Shown here: in pieces, positions 2,394 to 11,136 of the stretch | Layout: each line of letters starts with the position of its first letter | Numbering within the stretch: the stretch's first letter is position 1 | Assembly (NCBI GenBank): GCA_018817845.1 | Contig: JAHITH010000084.1 | Span: 1 to 12,001, forward strand | Direction: 5' to 3' | Origin: Patescibacteria group bacterium | Lineage (GTDB): Bacteria; Patescibacteriota; Microgenomatia; UBA1400; MFAQ01 | DNA: 12,001 nt | The notes under the pieces: generated by a model | Database searches by the model: none | Told to the model about the DNA's origin: nothing | What the model saw: only the letters and a program-made list of their open reading frames with translations | Position numbers and translations under genes: made by a program

Positions 2394-2417
2394 AAAAAAA
2401 CCTCCCATTTGGGAGGT
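2394..2417 (-). terminator. Intrinsic terminator downstream of the decarboxylase gene
   Basis: On the - strand ACCTCCC (2417-2411), the loop AAAT, then GGGAGGT (2406-2400) form a perfect 7-bp GC-rich stem, followed directly by six T (2399-2394). This is a classical rho-independent terminator. It lies 115 bases past the decarboxylase stop codon and just before the SD of the 82-aa gene, so it ends the five-gene operon or controls readthrough into the small gene. The + strand lacks a T-run after the stem, so it should work in one direction only. Confidence 0.85.
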
Positions 2418-2532: not shown

Positions 2533-4026
2533 TTATTTAACAAATCTAGACGATATTCCTTTTTCCAAACCAGCAACCGCCTGATCAATAATACCATTGG
2601 TGGTTCGCGGATTCATAATGCAAGACCTATAAACCCAGATCGCATTCCCTCCATCTAAAGGTAATTTTGTACCAGAAAAAAAATATCCTCCAACCCTCTC
2701 AATTCCTTTATCCAAGTCAATTCTAGTAGACTCAATCAATTCTTCCATTCTCTTATGATCACCACTATCAACTTCCAACCGTCTTAAGGCTTCGTCTGAA
2801 TAAGTAAAACACAACAAATTCAACTCAGGGTAATGGAGCGGTACCAACAAGCTCGATTCTTCCACTCTCTTATGTAAATACTCTATTCTGTCAAGTGTTA
2901 AATCATACATTACTTCCAAACCTTTTCGTCCCAACGTTCGAAGAACAGCCAAGGTAGACAAAATCGGGTCAGGCCCCATAGACCCCTCTATTCTCTTTTG
3001 TCCCAAGTTACCCTTACCTAAATACTCAGCTCTATCTGCATATCCAAAAAAAATATCCTTTTTATCTCGCCACAAAACCGCACCATTAGCATACGGGGTC
3101 CCCAAGGCCTTATGTGGATCCAGGGTCACGGCATATGCTCTTTCCATCCCTTCAAACAATTGCCCATTTCTAGATAATCTGTAGGGTGCTCCATATGCCC
3201 CATCAACAATAAACAAACCACCTTCTCTTTCTGTCATGTCAGCCATTTCAACCAAGGGGTCAATTAAACCAGTTTCTGTTTCCCCAGCAATTCCCACCAC
3301 CACAAACGGACTACCCTCCCCTTTTACCTTCTCTATTTCTTCCTGCAAACTATCCATGGATATCTTCAGGTTTTCAGAACCAACCGCCCTTTTTTCCACT
3401 TGCCCATGTGGACCACCAATAATGTCACACATCTTAGATACAGAGTAGTGTGCAAAGGGCGAGGTGATAACCACCATCTTGCCACCCTCCCTTGATATTC
3501 TCTCATCACAATTTCTCCTAGCAGACATCAAGGCCGTCTGCATCGCCATACTTCCACCAGAAGTAAAAGTCCCATCTGCTTTTTCAGGATCAAACCCAAT
3601 TATCTCAGCCAAGCCCCTAATTGCTTCTGGCTCTAGTTCAGTAGAAAACCTAGACACCTCTCTTGCCACTGTATTATCTCCCACTCTTACTCCCAACATA
3701 TGCCCCAACATTCCAGGAATTGACGCCTGCGTCAACATATGCCCCAAATATGTTTCGTCAAAAAGCCTGGCTTTACCCATATCTCTTGCCACACTCGCCA
3801 TTCCCTCTAACAACTTCAATTCACTTTCACTCAGTCTATCCAAATCTCCTATAAACAACTCTGCCATTTTCTCCATAAAAATAGTTGTTTCAAGCCCAGG
3901 TCTTTTTAAATCAGGATACGCAGACAAAACCAAATCTATCTCTCCAATTAAATGATCACCTGTTTCAGCCAACTCCACAACCAATCTCTCCCTGTCCCTC
4001 CTAAATCTTTCTTTACTCAGTCCCAT
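2533..4026 (-). CDS. PLP-dependent group II amino acid decarboxylase
   Basis: A 497-residue fold-type I PLP enzyme of the glutamate/tyrosine/aromatic amino acid decarboxylase group; it would convert an L-amino acid to the amine plus CO2. Visible family marks are TSGGSMAMQTAL (155-166, PLP phosphate loop), FAHYSVSK with His193 stacking on PLP, GETETGLIDP (248-257), VDGAYG with Asp275 for the pyridine nitrogen, and DPHKALGTPY with Schiff-base Lys306. The C-terminal RSCIMNPRTTN block is also typical. The substrate cannot be read from these motifs: Tyr, Asp, Glu and Trp enzymes share them. The gene is last in the operon, 19 bp after the M20 gene, with no recognisable SD before its ATG, so it probably depends on cotranscription. 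A transcription terminator follows 115 bases downstream. By context it may act on the amino acid released by the M20 enzyme. Confidence 0.88.
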   Translation of the reverse strand: MGLSKERFRRDRERLVVELAETGDHLIGEIDLVLSAYPDLKRPGLETTIFMEKMAELFIGDLDRLSESELKLLEGMASVARDMGKARLFDETYLGHMLTQASIPGMLGHMLGVRVGDNTVAREVSRFSTELEPEAIRGLAEIIGFDPEKADGTFTSGGSMAMQTALMSARRNCDERISREGGKMVVITSPFAHYSVSKMCDIIGGPHGQVEKRAVGSENLKISMDSLQEEIEKVKGEGSPFVVVGIAGETETGLIDPLVEMADMTEREGGLFIVDGAYGAPYRLSRNGQLFEGMERAYAVTLDPHKALGTPYANGAVLWRDKKDIFFGYADRAEYLGKGNLGQKRIEGSMGPDPILSTLAVLRTLGRKGLEVMYDLTLDRIEYLHKRVEESSLLVPLHYPELNLLCFTYSDEALRRLEVDSGDHKRMEELIESTRIDLDKGIERVGGYFFSGTKLPLDGGNAIWVYRSCIMNPRTTNGIIDQAVAGLEKGISSRFVK

Positions 4027-4045
4027 ATTACTTAATTAAGTTACA

Positions 4046-5125
4046 TTAATTATCGGTCTTTGTCAAGGAGATCAAGAATTCCTTTAACACCTCTTTATAT
4101 TCACCCATGGCTTTCACATCCAACCATTCATTTTCTGTATGTACCAGACCACCTTCCGGTTTAGACAAAATCACAGGAATCTCTTTACTAGTAAAAAACC
4201 TTCCATCAGATGCGCCATGCTCCCTAGCTAACAACCTTTCGGTCCTGTATCTAGTAATCAACTTACTCCAAAGTTTAATATGTTTATCATCACCATCAAC
4301 AAAAAATGGGTCTGCTGTAACGATCTCTTCCAGCTCAGAAAACTTAACTACATCCCTTATTCTCTTCCATAAAGACTCCCTTTTTTCTTTTGGGATATGT
4401 CTAAAATCCAAATACCCTTCGGCCAAATCACACACTTGATTGGTTTGACTCCCACCGTGCAACTGACCAATATTCATCGTTGTTTCCCAAACCTCCTTTT
4501 CAGGGCTGGGAAACTCTTTCCTTAAAACCACCAAATCTTTCATTAATAAATCAATCGCATTTTTACCTTCCCATGGCTTCGATGAATGTGCTGACTCACC
4601 ATTAACAACTAACTTAACATGCAACACTCCCTTGGCTTCATTCACCATATGCCAATTATCTCCCCCATCAGGAATCACCACCACCCCTGGTTTAAATCCA
4701 ATCTCATTTACCAAGTAACCAACTCCATTCATTCCTCCAACTTCTTCATCAGAAGTAAGCATAATTCCTAAACTTGGCAACTCTCCTTTTTCTTCATACA
4801 ACTCTTTCAACACATCTATAAATACTGCCACGGCAAACTTCATGTCACTCACTCCTCGCCCCAAAAGTTTTCCACCTTCCTCCTTCATCACAAACATTCC
4901 ATCGGACCCAGGCACCACGTCAATGTGGGCGTTCAACAAAACCTTTGGCTTCAAAGTGTCCTCCGTCAACCAAACATAAGATATTTTTCCATTACTCTCA
5001 AATCGTTTTTTAATAAACGGATAAAAATCAAGGCGCTCTCCAATATACTCAAAACACTCTTCTATCTCATCATCATTTCCTCCAACTGTTTCAAAAGCCA
5101 CCAGGTGACTAAGTATCTCTCTCAT
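4046..5125 (-). CDS. M20-family metallopeptidase/deacylase (DapE/ArgE-like; candidate N-acyl-L-amino acid desuccinylase)
   Basis: A 359-residue zinc hydrolase of the M20 family, cytoplasmic (no signal peptide). All catalytic positions are visible: His67 and Asp69 in NAHIDVVP, bridging Asp94 in GRGVSDMK, Glu127 (base) and Glu128 (metal) in SDEEVGG, Asp153 in IPDGG, and His329 in GLVHTENE. The dimerisation lid lies at about 165-270 and includes NGESAHSS with His180. Family members cleave N-acetyl or N-succinyl groups from amino acids (ArgE, DapE) or act on dipeptides. Placed 5 bp after an N-acylamino acid racemase gene, it is best explained as the enzyme freeing the L-amino acid from its N-acyl form, as in the described succinyltransferase/NSAR/desuccinylase pathway. 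The acyl group is not proven. No lysine-biosynthesis or arginine-biosynthesis gene lies beside it. Confidence 0.88.
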   Translation of the reverse strand: MREILSHLVAFETVGGNDDEIEECFEYIGERLDFYPFIKKRFESNGKISYVWLTEDTLKPKVLLNAHIDVVPGSDGMFVMKEEGGKLLGRGVSDMKFAVAVFIDVLKELYEEKGELPSLGIMLTSDEEVGGMNGVGYLVNEIGFKPGVVVIPDGGDNWHMVNEAKGVLHVKLVVNGESAHSSKPWEGKNAIDLLMKDLVVLRKEFPSPEKEVWETTMNIGQLHGGSQTNQVCDLAEGYLDFRHIPKEKRESLWKRIRDVVKFSELEEIVTADPFFVDGDDKHIKLWSKLITRYRTERLLAREHGASDGRFFTSKEIPVILSKPEGGLVHTENEWLDVKAMGEYKEVLKEFLISLTKTDN

Positions 5126-5130
5126 ATTTT

Positions 5131-6237
5131 TTATTTTATCTCAAATTGTTTAACCATATATTTATTAATTCTAGACTTAACTACTTCATAACCCATTCCC
5201 ACACCACTTGGTACAGACACAAAACCATCATTAGAAATCTCAATGTCTTGTTTAGTAACATCTTCTCCAAAAAAAGTCTTAGACGGAGTAATATCAGCAG
5301 GTAAAGAAAATTCAGACAATGTTGCCACCGCCACATTGTATGCTTTTCCAATTCCAGTCTCTAGCATTCCCCCACACCACAACTTTATCCCGTTTTTCTT
5401 CGCTATTTTGTTAATTTTTTTCACCTCAGTCAAGCCACCTACTCTCCCTGGCTTCACATTAATTATTCTACAAGCACCAATCTCAATTGCTTTTCTTGCA
5501 TCTTCAGCACTCAATATGCTCTCATCCAAACAAATAGGGGTTTTTAGTTCTTTCTGCACCTTAGCATGATCAATAATGTCATCAAATGCCAACGGTTGCT
5601 CAATCATCAACAAATCAAACTCATCTAGTTTCCTCAATAAATCCATATCCTTCAATCTATAAGAAGAGTTGGCATCTACCATCAGAGATATTTTGGGGAA
5701 TTTTTTTCTAATCGCCCTCAGAGGTTTACAGTCCCACCCTGGTTTCACTTTTATCTTTATCCGCCGATACCCTTCACCCACCCTTTTTCCAACCACCTCA
5801 AGTAATTTATCAACGCTAGGCTGCACTCCAATACTTTCCCCAATAGGTACCTTACTCCTTGTCCCACCCAACAAATCCTTCAAACTTTTCTTTTTCAAAA
5901 GTGACTCAATCTCCCACAAGGCAGACTCCACTCCATGTTTAGCAATATTATTTCCTCTAACAAAACTACAATCATTCACGTACTCCTCTATGGTTAACTC
6001 CCTATTTAACAGCTTGGGGACCAAGAAATCCTTAATTATATGGATACATGTCTCAGTAGTCTCGGTTAAATAAACTGGGGCAGATAACGCTGCCGCCTCC
6101 CCATAACCAACCACACCATCATTGGTCTCAAGTCTCACGATTACCGCATCTCTTTCACTAATGTCACCAAAACCCGTAGTAAAAGTAAACTTCATCGGTA
6201 AAGTTATATGTAAAATCTCAACCTTCTTTATCTTCAT
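5131..6237 (-). CDS. Enolase-superfamily N-acylamino acid racemase (NSAR/OSBS family)
   Basis: A 368-residue muconate-lactonizing-subgroup enzyme with capping domain (about 1-125) and TIM barrel (about 126-330). Its motifs match the NSAR/o-succinylbenzoate synthase family: the KxK base Lys161/Lys163 in RRIKIKVKPGWD, metal ligands Asp188 (VDAN), Glu213 (IEQPL) and Asp238 (CLDES), the opposite base Lys262 (NVKPGRVGG), and WCGGMLETGIGKAYN (287-301). These positions are each one below those I recall for the Amycolatopsis racemase, so the active site is complete. It should epimerise an N-acyl (probably N-succinyl) amino acid in either direction. OSBS activity for menaquinone is the alternative, but no men gene is visible here. 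The gene starts 3 bp after the GNAT gene stops and is followed at 5 bp by M20. Both partners fit N-acylamino acid racemisation. Dipeptide epimerase is less likely given the GGMLETG block. Confidence 0.88.
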   Translation of the reverse strand: MKIKKVEILHITLPMKFTFTTGFGDISERDAVIVRLETNDGVVGYGEAAALSAPVYLTETTETCIHIIKDFLVPKLLNRELTIEEYVNDCSFVRGNNIAKHGVESALWEIESLLKKKSLKDLLGGTRSKVPIGESIGVQPSVDKLLEVVGKRVGEGYRRIKIKVKPGWDCKPLRAIRKKFPKISLMVDANSSYRLKDMDLLRKLDEFDLLMIEQPLAFDDIIDHAKVQKELKTPICLDESILSAEDARKAIEIGACRIINVKPGRVGGLTEVKKINKIAKKNGIKLWCGGMLETGIGKAYNVAVATLSEFSLPADITPSKTFFGEDVTKQDIEISNDGFVSVPSGVGMGYEVVKSRINKYMVKQFEIK

Positions 6238-6240
6238 GTG

Positions 6241-7137
6241 TTAAATCTTTCTGCTAAATACATAATAATTTCGCCTATCTCCATTTATCATACCGCTTGC
6301 AAAACCACTTACCAAATGAGTCCCTACTCCAAAATCCCTATCCGCCTGCCAATCCATAGTCACTAAAGCAACTTTTCTTAAACCCATCCTCCATTTGTCA
6401 ACATCAACAACATTCTCAGCAACCCCTGGTATTTGCACCAGGAACCTATCTCGTTCAACTTTTTTCAAATCAGTCACATCAATCACTGGCAAACCATCAA
6501 TATCCATAAGGGACAATGGTTCCAAATCTCCATCGCACACATGACTCCAAACCACTGGATTACCAATATCCCATCTTACGGTAAACCTGTCAGTCGGCGA
6601 CTCACCATACAAATCACTTGGCACCCTACCATACTTATTCACGGTATATAAATACGGCCACGCACCCAACTTTTCAATATACAATCTGGCATTTGCTCCC
6701 AATAACGGATCATACGTCCAATCAATTCTATCCACACCTTTTTCTCTCGCCAACATTCCCTGCAATAAACACATATCCCTACCTAAATCATTTACATAAC
6801 GATTCTCTCTATCCACTCCCACCATATGCAAAATCAATTTATTAAAAATAGTCCCCACCGTAAAAGACATTCCGTTCATCTCTCCATCTTTGTTATAGCT
6901 TGCAATCACCGCACCACCCGTATCTTCAGCTACAGCCAAAAAGTTACTTGGCACCGCCTCTCTAACTGGCATTTCCCACACTAAACTTTGTAGCTCCACC
7001 ATTTTCTCAAGTTCTTCAATTTCTTGCCAACCCAATCTCTTATACCAAGTTTCTCCTTTCTCTCTTTCTTTCAACCAATTTCCGTTACCTATTTCAATAA
7101 TTCCCGAACCAATTTCAGCCAATCTCTCTCGTTTCAT
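6241..7137 (-). CDS. GNAT-superfamily acyltransferase, COG3375-like (candidate amino acid N-succinyltransferase)
   Basis: A 298-residue protein resembling the COG3375 predicted acetyltransferases. Recognisable pieces are VWEMPVREAVPSNFLAVA (53-70), the hydrophobic strand LILHMVGVDREN (101-112), DWTYDPLLGANARLYIEKLGAW (139-160), where family members have TWTFDPL followed by the N-terminal part of a helix, and SPTDRFTVRW (180-189). About 105 further residues complete the C-terminus. It would move an acyl group from acyl-CoA to an amino group. In the described D- to L-amino acid pathway the first step is a GNAT succinyltransferase encoded beside an NSAR and an M20 gene, which is the arrangement here. 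Oddly, the acyl-CoA loop normally written (R/Q)xxGxG reads YVNDLG (114-119), with two of its residues changed. The ATG overlaps the aminotransferase stop as ATGA, implying translational coupling. Confidence 0.78.
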   Translation of the reverse strand: MKRERLAEIGSGIIEIGNGNWLKEREKGETWYKRLGWQEIEELEKMVELQSLVWEMPVREAVPSNFLAVAEDTGGAVIASYNKDGEMNGMSFTVGTIFNKLILHMVGVDRENRYVNDLGRDMCLLQGMLAREKGVDRIDWTYDPLLGANARLYIEKLGAWPYLYTVNKYGRVPSDLYGESPTDRFTVRWDIGNPVVWSHVCDGDLEPLSLMDIDGLPVIDVTDLKKVERDRFLVQIPGVAENVVDVDKWRMGLRKVALVTMDWQADRDFGVGTHLVSGFASGMINGDRRNYYVFSRKI

Positions 7138-8288
7138 ATTTTTTCCAATCTCTTCCTTATCTCAGCCACCCTACCCAAACTGCCTGGTATTCTCATTCTA
7201 ACCAATGAACTATCCATATTCTCATGGGTAGGTTTAAACGTAGCTCCATCTTCTGTACCAATCCCAAGGTCCAACAAAGTTTTATAAAAATTACCCTCAC
7301 CTCTGGCCAACAAAATACTTACCATTGGATGTGACCCAAACACATCAATTCCCACTTCTTGTAACACCCTTACCATCTGCCTTTTTATCAACTCAGTCTT
7401 CTTTCTCACGTCCGGCAAAAACTCAGCTAGCATCACAGGCTCCAATGCCACCTCTCCAACCAAACCAGTAAAAGTATCCACAGAAAAAACCAACTCAATA
7501 TTTTTATATACCTCAGCTAAAGGTCTCGACATTGCCATGTATCCTAATCTTGGCGAAGCCAAACCAATCACCTTAGATAAAGATCTCGTCACTATCATGT
7601 TATTAGCATTTTCCATCAACCCAAATGCAGACATCCCATCAGGTATAGAATCTCCAAAGGCTTCGTCCACAATCAACAAATCTCCTCGTTTTTGTGTCAA
7701 CATAACTAAGGCTTTCAAACTCTCTCCGTTAATTACATCCCCTGTTGGATTATTAGGATTATCAACATATACCACCGCCGGTCCCTTTCTTCTTTGCAAA
7801 TAATCACACAAATCAGATATTTTTACTTCAATCGGCTCTAACAATGGCGACTGTACAGCCATATACGGTATCCTCGCCCTATCCGCCAATACCACTACAT
7901 TAGTAAACTGAGGACCATATCCCACTAATTCCAACCCACTACTTTTCACCATATCCGAAGAAACAAAATCACTAAAAATCGAAGCCAACAAACCATAACT
8001 GCCACATCCCCCAAAAAATACCTCGGTTTTTTTGTTTAAACCAAATCTCTCTCTAACATGCACACCCAACCTCTTTGCATAAGGATCCGCTGGATACTCT
8101 CTTAATAAGTCTTTGGTAATTCCACCCAACACGTCATTAACCTGACCTGGATATTCAAACGGTGAATGTCCCAACCCACAGTCAATAAAAGAAAATTCTG
8201 AATTTGGTTTACCTTGCTCAGATGCATAATCTCTCCTCTCAATTGGTCCTCTAATCAAATTTAGTGCTACTATTTCTTGTCTCGCCAT
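7134..8288 (-). CDS. PLP-dependent class I/II aminotransferase (HisC-like)
   Basis: A 384-residue fold-type I aminotransferase, closest in pattern to histidinol-phosphate/aromatic aminotransferases. Seen are the cofactor loop GCGSYGLL (94-101), DNPNNPTG (176-183) with Asn180, VDEAF with Asp208, TRSLSK with Schiff-base Lys239, SPRLGY with phosphate-binding Arg247, and a late Arg (364 or 366, LVRMRIP) for the substrate carboxylate. The usual DEAY Tyr is Phe211. It would swap the amino group between an amino acid and a 2-oxo acid; some relatives are PLP decarboxylases (CobD) or act on imidazole or aromatic substrates. No his gene is nearby, so HisC itself is unlikely. It is first in the operon, has no SD, and its ATG lies only a few bases after the predicted transcription start. 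The adjacent genes suggest it supplies or removes the amino acid handled by the racemase set. Confidence 0.85.
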   Translation of the reverse strand: MARQEIVALNLIRGPIERRDYASEQGKPNSEFSFIDCGLGHSPFEYPGQVNDVLGGITKDLLREYPADPYAKRLGVHVRERFGLNKKTEVFFGGCGSYGLLASIFSDFVSSDMVKSSGLELVGYGPQFTNVVVLADRARIPYMAVQSPLLEPIEVKISDLCDYLQRRKGPAVVYVDNPNNPTGDVINGESLKALVMLTQKRGDLLIVDEAFGDSIPDGMSAFGLMENANNMIVTRSLSKVIGLASPRLGYMAMSRPLAEVYKNIELVFSVDTFTGLVGEVALEPVMLAEFLPDVRKKTELIKRQMVRVLQEVGIDVFGSHPMVSILLARGEGNFYKTLLDLGIGTEDGATFKPTHENMDSSLVRMRIPGSLGRVAEIRKRLEKI

Positions 8289-8300
8289 AACAGTACCACT

Positions 8301-8329
8301 AGTCTACCTAATCAAACAACATTCGTCAA
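8301..8329 (-). promoter_or_regulatory. Sigma70-type promoter of the five-gene operon
   Basis: On the - strand TTGACG (8329-8324) and TAGACT (8306-8301) are separated by exactly 17 bp, matching 5 and 4 of the 6 consensus bases. Transcription would begin near 8294, leaving about 6 untranslated bases before the aminotransferase ATG at 8288. This agrees with the missing SD. It is the best promoter match in the window and lies in the 60-bp gap after tyrS. Confidence 0.7.
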
Positions 8330-8348
8330 GACTAAAAAAACTCTCCTC

Positions 8349-9542
8349 TTACTTCACCAACCTCAAATACCTTCTCCTCCCAATCCTCACCACTACCTCT
8401 TTAGTCAATTGAATTACATCATCTGTCAATCGCTTATCATTCACATAAACCGCTCCTTGTTCAATCAATCGCCTAAACTGAGATTTACTCTCCACCAATC
8501 CCTTATCAACCACCATCTCCATTAATTTATCAATACTCAATTTCTCCATTCCTACCTTCACCGTTATCACATCATCGGTTGCTATCTTTTGTTGAATCGT
8601 CTTCTCAAAATGCTCACCAGCCTTTACAGCCTCTTTTTCAGAACAAAGCTCCTCAATTATTTTCTCTGCCAATTGTTTCTTTATCTCCATCGGGTTTTCA
8701 GTTTCTTCCAACTCCTTCTTAATTTCTTTAACTTCATTCAAGGATACACTGGTTCCAAATTCAAAATACTCAATTATTAACTCATCCTTAATAGACATCA
8801 CCTTGCCATAAATTTCTTCAGGTTTATCATCCAACCAAATAGCATTTCCCCAAGTCTTACTCATCTTTCTACCATCCGTCCCCGATAAAAATCCATTAGC
8901 AATAATAAACGACTCCTTCTTACCCAACACCTTATTCAGTTTTCTACCGGCCTGCATATTAAACGTCTGATCGGTCCCACCCAATTGAATGTCAGTATTC
9001 AAATGATAGCTATCATAACCTTGCATCAACGGATACAACACTTCAGGCAAACTCACTCTTTTACCTTCATCCAGTCTTTTTCTTATTAATTCTCTGCTCA
9101 CAAAATCATTAACAGAAAAATGACCAGCCAAAAACAACACCTCTCCAAAGGTCAATTTTTTCAGCCACTCACTATTAAACTTCACTTCAATATTGGTAAA
9201 GTCCAACACCTTCTCCGCTTGTTTTTTATAAGTAGCAAAATTTTTCTCAATTTCTTCTCGTGTCAAGACCGGCCTTTCACCTTCTTTATCAGAAGTATCC
9301 CCAATAGTAGCCGTAAAATCCCCAATTAAAAACGTTACCTTGTGTCCCAAATCAGACAATAATTGTAATTTCCGTAAGGGCACCACATGCCCCAAATGAA
9401 TCCTTGTCCCTGTTGGTTCGATCCCAACATATACATTTAGCTTTTTCCCAGACGATAGTAAATCCTCCAATTCCTTCTTTGATGGAATCACGTTCTCCAC
9501 ACATCTCTCAATTAAATCCTTAATTCTATCTTTATCATTCAT
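8349..9542 (-). CDS. tyrS: Tyrosyl-tRNA synthetase
   Basis: A 397-residue class I TyrRS that charges tRNA(Tyr), of the TyrZ-like bacterial type. GIEPTGTRIHLGH contains the HIGH-type HLGH (49-52). LGGTDQTFNMQAGR belongs to the tyrosine pocket region, and KMSKT (226-230) is the KMSKS loop with Thr last. The tail (from about 325) is an S4 RNA-binding domain (SQFRRLIEQGAVYVNDKR). I chose the ATG at 9542 rather than the TTG two codons upstream at 9548, because the extended -10 (ends at 9549) predicts transcription start at about 9542; the TTG would lie upstream of the mRNA. No SD is present. Stop TAA is followed by a run of seven T (8340-8334) without a visible hairpin, so some transcription may continue into the downstream operon. 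Confidence 0.95.
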   Translation of the reverse strand: MNDKDRIKDLIERCVENVIPSKKELEDLLSSGKKLNVYVGIEPTGTRIHLGHVVPLRKLQLLSDLGHKVTFLIGDFTATIGDTSDKEGERPVLTREEIEKNFATYKKQAEKVLDFTNIEVKFNSEWLKKLTFGEVLFLAGHFSVNDFVSRELIRKRLDEGKRVSLPEVLYPLMQGYDSYHLNTDIQLGGTDQTFNMQAGRKLNKVLGKKESFIIANGFLSGTDGRKMSKTWGNAIWLDDKPEEIYGKVMSIKDELIIEYFEFGTSVSLNEVKEIKKELEETENPMEIKKQLAEKIIEELCSEKEAVKAGEHFEKTIQQKIATDDVITVKVGMEKLSIDKLMEMVVDKGLVESKSQFRRLIEQGAVYVNDKRLTDDVIQLTKEVVVRIGRRRYLRLVK

Positions 9543-9566
9543 ATCCAAATTTTACCATGATAGAAT
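9538..9566 (+). promoter_or_regulatory. Promoter of gatCA-gatB (extended -10)
   Basis: TGATAGAAT (9558-9566) is an extended -10 with hexamer TAGAAT. TTCATA at 9538-9543 gives a 4-of-6 -35 match at 17-bp spacing, although it lies across the tyrS start codon. Transcription start would be about 9573, only a few bases before the ATG at 9577, so the mRNA would be nearly leaderless; no SD is present. Confidence 0.6.
9549..9557 (-). promoter_or_regulatory. Extended -10 promoter of tyrS
   Basis: The - strand reads TGGTAAAAT from 9557 to 9549, an extended -10 (TGnTATAAT type, 5 of 6 in the hexamer). No good -35 box stands at 16-18 bp, which extended -10 promoters tolerate. The expected transcription start, about 7 bases on, falls at or next to the tyrS ATG (9542), predicting a leaderless mRNA. 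Confidence 0.6.
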
Positions 9567-9576
9567 ACAACTAAAC

Positions 9577-11136
9577 ATGACTGATGTAAAAAGCATTGCC
9601 AAACTTGCCCATTTAACTCTAACCAACCAAGAGTTAAAACTCTACTCCAAACAATTTAAGGCCATCTTGGGTTACATAGACCAACTATCTAAAGTAGATA
9701 CCAAAGGCATAAAACCTACATTCCAAACCATAGACAACACCACCAATATCTGGCGCAATGACAAGGTCCGTCCTTGTCTAACTCAAAAACAGGCTTTATC
9801 TTCAGCTTCAAAAACCCACCAAGGATATTTTGTAGCCGATCATGTTTTTAGCCCTACTAACTTACCGTCTTCGTCATTCCCGCGTAGGCGGGAATCTATT
9901 AAATCCAAAGAAAAACAAGACGAATACGGAGCCATACTAACCAAGGTAGACTCAAAGGGAACAGTTGGCCACAAAGATCTTTTTTGTACTAAGGGAATAG
10001 AAACCACCGCCGGCTCCAAAGTCTTACTGGGCTATATTCCTCAATACTCAGCCACCCTAGTTAAGCAACTAGAAAATTTGGGCTTAAAAACTAAACACAA
10101 ATTAAATCAAGACGCTTGGGGTCACGGTTCAAGCGGTGAAAACTCTGACTTCTTCCCCACCCAAAATCCCTGGGACAAAAAAAGAGTAGCCGGCGGTTCA
10201 TCCAGTGGTAGCGCCGCTACCGTTGCTACCGGCGAGGTAGAATTAGCCACCGGCACGGATACTTGTGGCTCTATTAGAATGCCTTCTGCCTACTGTAACG
10301 TTACCGGTCTAAAACCAACTTACGGTGCCATAAGCAGATATGGGCTAATTGCCTTTGCCAGTAGTTTGGATTGTCCCGGACTTATAACTACCTCCGCCAA
10401 AAAATTAAAGAAAATATATAAATCAGTTGCTGTACCAGACCCACTAGACGCCACCAGTCAAAGCCCTTCAAGAAACAAAACAAAAACCAAACCCATTAAA
10501 ACCATTGGCGTACCCAAAGAATTTTTACTAAAAGGACTTGACCCTAAAATAAAAACCCTTACCCTAAAAGCCGCCGACCAGTTTAAAAAAGCAGGCTATA
10601 AAATAAAAGAAGTTTCTCTACCCCACGCCCATCTCGCCATCGCCACCTACTACATCATTGCCCCAGTAGAAGCCTCTAGCAATCTAGCTAGATACGACGG
10701 CGTCCGCTATGGCTATCCTAGAAACCATTTTGGGCCAGAGGCAAAACGACGAATCATGCTGGGAACTTTTGCCTCCTCCGTCGGTTACGCAGATAAATAC
10801 TACGAAAAAGCCGCCAAGGTAAGAACTTTAATAATCAACGATTTCAAAAAAGCCTTTGGGTCCGTTGACGCCATACTTGCCCCAATCTCACCCACCCCCG
10901 CCTTTTTATTGGGTGAAAAAGTAGACGACCCTTTAAAACTATACTTAATGGACATCTACACCGCCCCCGCCAGTCTTGCTGGCTTACCCGCAGTCTCCGT
11001 ACCCTGTGGATTCTCAAATAAACTACCCGTTGGTATGCAACTAATTGGCCCCCGTTGGAACGATTTAGAACTACTCAACTTAGCAGAAAAATATCAACAG
11101 CTAACCAACTGGCACAAACAAAAACCAAACATATGA
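9577..11136 (+). CDS. gatCA: Fused GatC-GatA, tRNA-dependent amidotransferase subunits C and A
   Basis: One 519-residue frame carries two subunits of the Glu-tRNA(Gln)/Asp-tRNA(Asn) amidotransferase. Residues 3-91 are a whole GatC ([48 protein letters not shown]). From about 130 on it is GatA, the amidase that frees ammonia from glutamine: Lys133 ([10 protein letters not shown]), cis-Ser208 (AGGSSSGS) and nucleophile Ser232 (TDTCGSIR) form the amidase triad at the right spacing, followed by [20 protein letters not shown] and [15 protein letters not shown]. The first part of GatA is abnormal: only about 41 residues separate GatC from the catalytic Lys, against about 78 in a free GatA. Part of that stretch, SFPRRRESI, is translated from a palindromic repeat, and the usual GIPIAIKDN reads GTVGHKDLF. 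Also unusual are GGSSS and TDTCGS where most have GGSSG and TDTGGS. The stop overlaps gatB as ATGA. Confidence 0.9.
9876..9895. repeat. dRS3-like palindromic repeat inside gatCA
   Basis: A perfect 8-bp inverted repeat, ATTCCCGC and GCGGGAAT, encloses GTAG, fitting the 20-bp ATTCCC-N8-GGGAAT pattern known from Neisseria dRS3 repeats and similar dispersed elements in other bacteria. It is read in frame as part of the peptide SFPRRRESI in the GatC-GatA linker. It is more GC-rich than its surroundings. I see only this copy in the window. Confidence 0.8.

What the first reader, a model, noticed from the sequence alone, without database searches (positions are those of the whole stretch)
2533..8288. 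Compact operon combining an N-acylamino acid racemase set with an aminotransferase and a decarboxylase
Five genes in one direction with gaps of -4, 3, 5 and 19 bp encode a HisC-like aminotransferase, COG3375-like GNAT, NSAR/OSBS-family racemase, M20 deacylase and group II decarboxylase. Established: GNAT succinyltransferase, NSAR and M20 desuccinylase form a described route for irreversible D- to L-amino acid conversion in Geobacillus. Inference: here the set is extended into a salvage or amine-forming route: acylate the D-amino acid, racemise, deacylate to L, then transaminate or decarboxylate. I know of no description of this five-gene combination. It would be striking in a reduced genome with little amino acid metabolism.
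Basis: partly seen in the sequence, partly recalled or inferred. Interest (0 to 1): 0.85.

Follow-up and report, generated by a model that had tools for sequence, protein, structure and literature searches.

The report
Patchy amino-acid racemase operon in Patescibacteria
A tiny-genome bacterium carries five tightly packed genes that look set to attach a tag to an amino acid, flip its mirror-image form, remove the tag, and pass it to a transaminase and a decarboxylase; two relatives carry the same set, and a third has swapped the tag-adding enzyme for an apparently unrelated one.

Summary
In detail: five minus-strand genes, gaps -4, 3, 5 and 19 bp, encode a HisC-like PLP enzyme (AT), a GNAT-fold acyltransferase, an NSAR/OSBS-subfamily racemase, an M20 deacylase and a group II decarboxylase (DEC). 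The combination is not private to this contig: all five lie together in G005 (same family) and in an Amesbacteria genome (same class, other family). menB and menD are absent from 5 of 5 genomes, so the racemase is very unlikely to be a menaquinone enzyme.

That gene occurs in 3 of 349 class genomes, each time abutting a racemase; none of the three shows the GNAT. (2) In the DEC-I clade, 9 of 30 tree rows share a contig with a racemase, in several branches.

Best reading: an N-acylation/racemisation/deacylation cycle feeding transamination and amine formation, patchily distributed, with an exchangeable acylating enzyme. Substrate, direction and acyl group are unproven; tyrosine is a lead only.

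The parts
7134..8288 (-). AT: HisC/CobD-like fold-type I PLP aminotransferase, 384 aa
   Evidence: Aminotran_1_2 84.9 bits; best NCBIfam hisC 95.0 and CobD 93.2 bits, both far below cut-offs; SLSK lysine K239 and NPNNPTG identical in window, G005 and Amesbacteria. AF2 model unusable, pLDDT 43
6241..7137 (-). GNAT-fold N-acyltransferase, 298 aa
   Evidence: no Pfam hit; AF2 model pLDDT 86, Foldseek hits are GNATs; of 18 relatives found outside Patescibacteria 17 lie directly beside an NSAR and 1 has only an M20 between
5131..6237 (-). NSAR/OSBS-subfamily racemase, 368 aa
   Evidence: TIGR01928 356.7 bits; PDB 1wuf (hypothetical lin2664) and 2zc8 (N-acylamino acid racemase), E<1e-93; K161, K163, D188, E213, D238, K262, R265 conserved in 22 of 22 aligned
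4046..5125 (-). M20 metallopeptidase-family deacylase, 359 aa
   Evidence: Pfam M20 and M20_dimer; ArgE/DapE-like, below every cut-off shown; H67, D94, E127, E128, D153, H329 identical in the three cassettes (their roles as metal ligands/base are recalled)
2533..4026 (-). DEC: group II PLP decarboxylase, 497 aa, clade DEC-I
   Evidence: Pyridoxal_deC 123.5 bits; K306, H193, D275 invariant in 21 aligned (roles recalled); groups with other racemase-linked decarboxylases
2400..2417 (-). terminator-like hairpin about 115 nt after the DEC stop
   Evidence: 7-pair stem + T run
8349..9548 (-). TyrS, only tyrosyl-tRNA synthetase found in the genome, 60 nt upstream of AT, same strand; probably housekeeping, possibly cotranscribed

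Best explanation
A patchily distributed operon that inverts the configuration of an amino acid through an N-acyl intermediate and hands the product to transamination and decarboxylation. GNAT N-acylates a D-amino acid (shown: GNAT fold; inferred: substrate), NSAR racemises the N-acyl amino acid (shown: the expected catalytic residues, no menB/menD; inferred: activity), M20 removes the acyl group from one enantiomer and pulls the equilibrium (inferred), DEC turns the L-amino acid into an amine and AT interconverts it with its 2-oxo acid (inferred). The acylating step is exchangeable: in G186, G182 and G309 a glutamate-cysteine-ligase-like enzyme sits beside NSAR where GNAT would be, which suggests ATP-driven (for example gamma-glutamyl) rather than CoA-driven acylation there. 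An aromatic substrate, tyrosine first, is a weak lead.
For: Five of five together in window, G005 and Amesbacteria. The three cassette racemases form one clade, 95/99. menB and menD 0 of 5 genomes; controls matched in 11 and 14 of 14. Acylating-enzyme swap: within family f26, Amesbacteria and G186 share DEC 74% (338 columns, the Amesbacteria DEC being cut), AT 65%, M20 74%, but NSAR only 46%, and GNAT versus GCS2-like; GCS2-like gene in 3 of 349 class genomes, all abutting NSAR (coordinates); none of the three is among the 6 of 373 with GNAT (same draw size as that held them), nor is a GNAT found in their fetched stretches. NSAR+M20 adjacent without DEC in G309, G182, G078, G232 and one gene apart in G334. 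DEC and NSAR rows share six longest-contig lengths, three of these also with GNAT. Tyrosine lead: TyrS within about 4.5 kb of a DEC in window, G005, G003, G008, G011, G009, G256 and G315, as a tyrS-like gene sits beside the tyrosine decarboxylase of Enterococcus (PMC3315439, passages).
Against: No assay. M20 of the window is only 32.5-33.3% identical to the M20s of G005, Amesbacteria and G186 and 26-35% to nine other M20s of these loci, so its specificity may differ. M20 stays 74% identical between Amesbacteria and G186 although the acylating enzyme changes, so either it is not the deacylase of that acyl group or it is tolerant. DEC-II decarboxylases keep company with M20 and TyrS but no NSAR. 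DEC's best NCBIfam scores are PanP (aspartate) and diaminobutyrate decarboxylases, above tyrosine ones, all below cut-off. TyrS in the window is the sole copy found, six of the eight TyrS-linked genomes are of family f1, and G186 has no TyrS near DEC. No succinyl-CoA synthetase alpha and no dephospho-CoA kinase above cut-off in 7 of 7.
Confidence: 0.45

Rival explanations
1. Small-molecule biosynthesis in the opposite sense: AT makes an amino acid, the acylating enzyme and NSAR make its D-epimer, M20 releases it, and DEC supplies an amine; the product is a D-amino-acid- or amine-containing compound or envelope component.
For: Neighbours of other NSARs of the class look biosynthetic: GCS2-like genes, class III aminotransferases, an AMP-binding-like protein (just under the Pfam cut-off), a pre-ATP-grasp/SAH-hydrolase fusion, a citramalate-synthase-like protein (just under its cut-off), and by eye a homocysteine-methyltransferase-like one. 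D-specific succinylases exist (PMC7431475, passages).
Against: No ligase, export or tailoring ORF of 90 aa or more lies between TyrS and ArgS in the window besides the five genes. Neighbours differ from genome to genome.
Confidence: 0.25
2. Scavenging of imported dipeptides or N-acyl amino acids: NSAR acts as an epimerase on peptides, M20 as a dipeptidase, and AT/DEC use the released amino acid; GNAT is accessory.
For: The M20 family includes peptidases; no prephenate dehydrogenase family member was found in G000, so it may be auxotrophic for tyrosine; DEC-II loci keep DEC+M20 without NSAR.
Against: GNAT lies beside NSAR, or one M20 away, in 18 of 18 loci outside Patescibacteria; the GCS2-like gene abuts NSAR in 3 of 3, so acylation seems central.
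Confidence: 0.14
3. The racemase is an o-succinylbenzoate synthase of menaquinone synthesis.
For: NCBIfam equivalog name menC_lowGC_arch above cut-off; many relatives are named OSBS by their sources.
Against: menB and menD 0 of 5 genomes, controls matched.
Confidence: 0.02
4. Neighbouring but functionally unrelated enzymes, gathered by chance or by a gene-acquisition hot spot next to tyrS.
For: Several DEC loci lie near tyrS and a HisS-like gene in family f1; gene order varies between cassettes.
Against: Same five families re-assembled in different orders in two other lineages; tight spacing with an overlap.
Confidence: 0.06

Closest known systems
Geobacillus NSAR pathway: GNAT N-succinyltransferase, NSAR, L-desuccinylase (Sakai 2006, recalled; not in the listing)
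   Same: GNAT + NSAR + M20 in one operon
   Different: adds a HisC-like AT and a group II decarboxylase; no succinyl-CoA synthetase alpha above cut-off; in relatives the GNAT is replaced by a GCS2-like enzyme
NSAR + GNAT pairs of Thermus/Meiothermus and Chloroflexota/Thermomicrobiales; NSAR-M20-GNAT in a Thermoanaerobaculia bin (L042)
   Same: GNAT of the same family directly beside NSAR in 17 of 18 loci, one M20 away in the other
   Different: no DEC-I or AT in any of the 18 stretches; M20 adjacent in one
tyrS-tdcA-tyrP tyramine cluster of enterococci (PMC3315439, passages)
   Same: TyrS gene beside a group II PLP decarboxylase
   Different: no tyrP-like ORF seen in the window; DEC scores 52 bits against the TIGR03811 cut-off of 905; window TyrS is the only copy; no NSAR in the enterococcal clusters (recalled)
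NSAR + stereospecific amidohydrolase cascades used in biotechnology (PMC7431475, passages)
   Same: racemase plus enantioselective deacylase drives inversion
   Different: man-made, substrates supplied N-acylated; no acylating enzyme

Membership tests
NSAR/OSBS subfamily of the enolase superfamily | profile match, paired catalytic lysines, three metal ligands, Lys-x-x-Arg motif | tested here: met
   TIGR01928 356.7 > 200.65 bits; residues conserved 22 of 22 (roles recalled; one row is a fragment missing the N-terminus)
o-succinylbenzoate synthase (MenC function) | genome holds other men genes | tested here: not met
   menB 0 of 5, menD 0 of 5; only these two men genes were sought
NSAR D-to-L conversion pathway | GNAT + NSAR + M20 encoded together | tested here: met
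NSAR D-to-L conversion pathway | succinyl-CoA as acyl donor available | tested here: inconclusive
   no sucD above cut-off in 7 of 7; sub-threshold matches in G005, G309 and G182 (181 and 108 bits in one 335 aa frame, likely a real relative); G000 is 88% complete and scavenging not excluded
NSAR D-to-L conversion pathway | D-specific acylation and L-specific deacylation | not testable with these tools
   needs assays
GNAT superfamily | GNAT fold | tested here: met
   AF2 model and Foldseek; no Pfam match
group II PLP decarboxylases | Pyridoxal_deC domain with catalytic lysine | tested here: met
   K306 invariant in 21 aligned
tyrosine decarboxylase of the TDC cluster (TIGR03811) | equivalog score | tested here: not met
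   52.2 bits against 905.3
GCS2 (for the replacing enzyme in G186, G309, G182) | profile above gathering score | tested here: met
   30.7 and 23.8 bits against 21 for G186 and G309; weak; G182's was not scanned against Pfam but is 48% identical to G186's
glutamate-cysteine ligase (named equivalogs) | NCBIfam equivalog scores | tested here: not met
   best 22.7 bits against 370.8

The most novel reading that the evidence does not exclude
In these reduced genomes the NSAR cycle runs with exchangeable acylating enzymes: a CoA-dependent GNAT in some, an ATP-dependent GCS2-like ligase that makes a gamma-glutamyl (or similar) amino acid in others, racemised by NSAR and released by M20. A CoA-free amino-acid inversion cycle via gamma-glutamyl amino acids, coupled in G186 to amine formation, would be a new kind of route.
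Probability: 0.27. Interest if true: 0.78.

Novelty: new variant of a known kind. Interest (0 to 1): 0.6.

Why it matters
Patescibacteria are thought of as poor in amino-acid metabolism. A recurrent, patchy amino-acid inversion and decarboxylation operon would be an unexpected capability, useful for feeding on D-amino acids from host or community cell walls or for making amines. The exchange of GNAT for a ligase-like enzyme beside the same racemase family is a natural experiment that could reveal the physiological acyl group of NSAR enzymes outside known systems, and could supply new enzyme pairs for making enantiopure amino acids.

Tried and rejected
Tyrosine as an established substrate: TyrS lies near a DEC in eight genomes, but the window TyrS is the only copy found, six of the eight genomes are of one family, and the second TyrS copies in G009, G256 and G315 do not form one group. 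Kept as a lead only. A link to prephenate enzymes rests on G078 alone; the five cassette-type genomes tested (G000, G001, G005, G186, G204) have no prephenate dehydrogenase match. OSBS rejected. The AT structure prediction failed and was not searched. No match in viral contigs with the GNAT profile. Rfam: nothing at gathering thresholds, so no known T-box or riboswitch in the window. The 548/559 aa proteins beside the GCS2-like genes have no Pfam or NCBIfam match and stay unexplained. Paper searches: papers with at least three of NSAR, OSBS, subfamily, Amycolatopsis: 0; Patescibacteria with acylamino acid racemase 0; Microgenomates with decarboxylase, racemase and amino acid 0; a broader search held 52 papers, of which the 12 listed say nothing of this combination in title or abstract start; two searches listed 20 of 1,241 and 20 of 330, likewise.
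Full report
What is there. One search finds the five ORFs exactly as described, on the minus strand, with gaps of -4, 3, 5 and 19 bp. Pfam and NCBIfam give Aminotran_1_2, MR_MLE N and C (TIGR01928 above its cut-off), M20 with its dimerisation domain, and Pyridoxal_deC. The GNAT has no Pfam match even at E=10 and no significant PDB sequence match (best E 0.44), but its AlphaFold model (pLDDT 86) is clearly GNAT by Foldseek (hits include RimI and the diaminobutyrate acetyltransferase EctA). A terminator-like hairpin follows DEC at 2417-2400, though such sites are only slightly commoner than in shuffled sequence. Upstream, 60 nt away on the same strand, is TyrS, the only one found in the genome. 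The window is one whole contig of a 718 kb, 88% complete genome.

Who else has it. Of 54 genomes (own and relatives) only G000, G001 (100% identical racemase) and G005 (63%) have the racemase at E<1e-100; the other 30 genomes with a match have only weak ones (best E 5e-11 to 7e-4), most in frames of about 420-460 aa, which I take to be enolase. A scan of genome contigs with the GNAT family found 20 loci. In 19 of them an NSAR lies directly beside the GNAT and in one (L042) an M20 lies between. Two of the 20 are Patescibacteria: G001's contig, and a Candidatus Amesbacteria contig holding DEC-AT-GNAT-NSAR-M20 (its DEC is cut by a run of N; it is the contig of G204 by length and gene positions). 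G005 has M20-TyrS-115 aa-DEC-AT-GNAT-NSAR. G001 has TyrS-AT-GNAT-NSAR-M20 and then its contig ends; its AT is split over two frames. In the other 18 loci (Chloroflexota and Thermomicrobiales, Thermus, Meiothermus, one Thermoanaerobaculia bin) DEC-I and AT are absent, 0 of 18 stretches; M20 is adjacent only in L042, which is NSAR-M20-GNAT. A decarboxylase of another type lies about 2.4 kb away on the other strand in L040, and a weak M20 match about 6 kb away in L033. The stretches differ in length (5.4 to 20.9 kb), so absence is limited to what was held. The class is probably Microgenomatia: G204 is the Amesbacteria contig, and G309's contig has the length of one named Levybacteria; the class name itself is recalled.

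Class-wide counts. The DEC profile matches 9 of 373 class genomes at E<=1e-60. In a 379-genome draw from the phylum only G000 and G003 match, so none outside the class in that draw. Relatives may still exist in other classes: one DEC homologue is named Saccharimonadales. The tree separates what I call DEC-I and DEC-II. The five DEC-II locus rows stand together at 100/99 (98/91 with one further protein); the branch to the 30 DEC-I rows is weak by itself (86/57). DEC-I holds the window, G005, Amesbacteria and G186. DEC-II holds G003, G011, G009, G256 and G315; G008 was not in the tree but has the same kind of match. DEC-II loci have no NSAR in the stretches read, but carry M20 beside DEC in G009, G256 and G315 and with one gene between in G003, and TyrS within about 3.5 kb in all six (G008 and G011 lie on short contigs and show no M20). 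All three DEC-I genomes of the draw (G000, G186, G204) have NSAR, which occurs in only 13 of 373. In protein searches, DEC and NSAR rows share six longest-contig lengths: 39664 (which is G005), 20738, 21785, 79400, 71031 and 11645; three of these (20738, 21785, 79400) also hold a GNAT, and 14177 is shared by GNAT and DEC only. Matching contigs by length is an inference, and on the longer contigs it does not show adjacency. The 9 racemase-sharing rows of the 30 DEC-I rows sit in several branches; for most of the other rows the neighbourhood is unknown.

The acylating-enzyme swap. G186 has DEC-AT-M20 on one strand and NSAR plus a 484 aa GCS2-like protein on the other. G182 and G309 have the GCS2-like gene, NSAR and M20 in a row. 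The GCS2-like profile matches 3 of 349 class genomes: exactly these three, each abutting or overlapping NSAR (with the coordinates). None is among the 6 of 373 genomes with the GNAT family, and no GNAT of this family is in their fetched stretches. Of those six, G000 and G204 have GNAT beside NSAR and G232 a very weak match beside NSAR; G230 (alone), G331 and G081 (inside longer frames) have GNAT without NSAR in the stretches read. Amesbacteria (G204) and G186 belong to one family, and their DEC, AT and M20 are 74, 65 and 74% identical while their NSARs are only 46%. So the acylating enzyme and its racemase appear to have been exchanged together beside a constant DEC-AT-M20. The GCS2 assignment is weak (30.7 bits, cut-off 21), with an invariant GxExE stretch near the N-terminus, whose role as metal ligand is recalled.

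Racemase identity. The three cassette racemases form a clade, 95/99, in which G005 pairs with Amesbacteria (92/97) rather than with the window of its own family. With the patchy distribution this suggests horizontal transfer; it is not proof. The residues expected for NSAR/OSBS catalysis are present in 22 of 22 sequences, one of them an N-terminally cut fragment. menB and menD are missing from 5 of 5 genomes, three of these at least 90% complete. NSAR function is therefore far likelier than OSBS.

How it may work. Shown: families, motifs, linkage, the swap. Inferred: chemistry. The likeliest order is acylation, racemisation, enantioselective deacylation, then decarboxylation or transamination. 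Donor: no succinyl-CoA synthetase alpha above cut-off in 7 of 7 genomes; sub-threshold matches in G005, G309 and G182, the last (181 and 108 bits in one 335 aa frame) probably a real relative. So at least in G000, G001, G186 and G204 the acyl group need not be succinyl; NSARs accept many N-acyl groups (PMC7431475, passages). Substrate: TyrS lies within about 4.5 kb of a DEC in eight genomes, reminiscent of the enterococcal tyramine cluster (PMC3315439, passages), but six of those eight are one family, the window TyrS is the single copy, and the best-scoring named decarboxylase families act on aspartate and diaminobutyrate. I give an aromatic substrate about 0.3.

Results against the reading. 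Window M20 is no closer to the other cassette M20s (32.5-33.3%) than to M20s of other loci (26-35%). M20 does not change with the acylating enzyme between Amesbacteria and G186. G186 has no TyrS near the locus. DEC-II shows DEC and M20 together without NSAR. Nothing here measures direction, substrate or expression. Several other NSARs of the class (G203, G295, G157, G381, G320) have no M20 in the stretches read (some contigs are short), so the full cycle is not universal. Neither AT nor GNAT has a close characterised relative by sequence.

Verdict. A real, recurrent operon type built on a known racemase module, with two PLP enzymes added and, in relatives, an exchangeable acylating enzyme. New variant of a known kind; interest 0.6.

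Noticed in passing
window 9577-11136: GatC and GatA are fused in one ORF; the junction holds a palindromic repeat (9877-9896), which also occurs in G001's contig (L021:19309-19328; 1 of 93 loci), inside the ORF at 18876-19454 that looks by eye like peptidyl-tRNA hydrolase. Possibly a repeat-borne fusion.
   Followed up: partly
window 3848-9558 against L021 141-5826: Window and G001 are 99-100% identical over M20, NSAR and most of GNAT but 84.7-98.5% and mosaic over TyrS: recent recombination or a chimeric assembly.
   Followed up: partly
L021:3427-4556 (G001): AT is split into two overlapping frames in G001: frameshift or assembly error. Left as is.
   Followed up: no
L057, L058, L059 (G009, G315, G256): A second TyrS lies beside a DEC-II + M20 pair; the second copies do not form one group in the tree.
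   Followed up: partly
L072:10239-11918 and L073:4348-5994: A 548-559 aa family (31% identical pair) with no Pfam or NCBIfam match lies beside the GCS2-like gene in G309 and G182.
   Followed up: partly
L074:4981-7566 (G203): Pre-ATP-grasp/ATP-grasp domains in one ORF with S-adenosylhomocysteine hydrolase, next to a class I glutamine amidotransferase and NSAR.
   Followed up: no
L089:7251-9608 and L090:1379-3283: The GNAT family lies inside longer frames of 785 and 634 aa in G331 and G081, without NSAR nearby.
   Followed up: no
DEC alignment A6, window residues 249-253: The 21 aligned DEC-I proteins carry an invariant ETETG (GETETG in most) where the two decarboxylases aligned have GTTVTG and GTTTTG; may bear on PLP or substrate contacts.
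   Followed up: no
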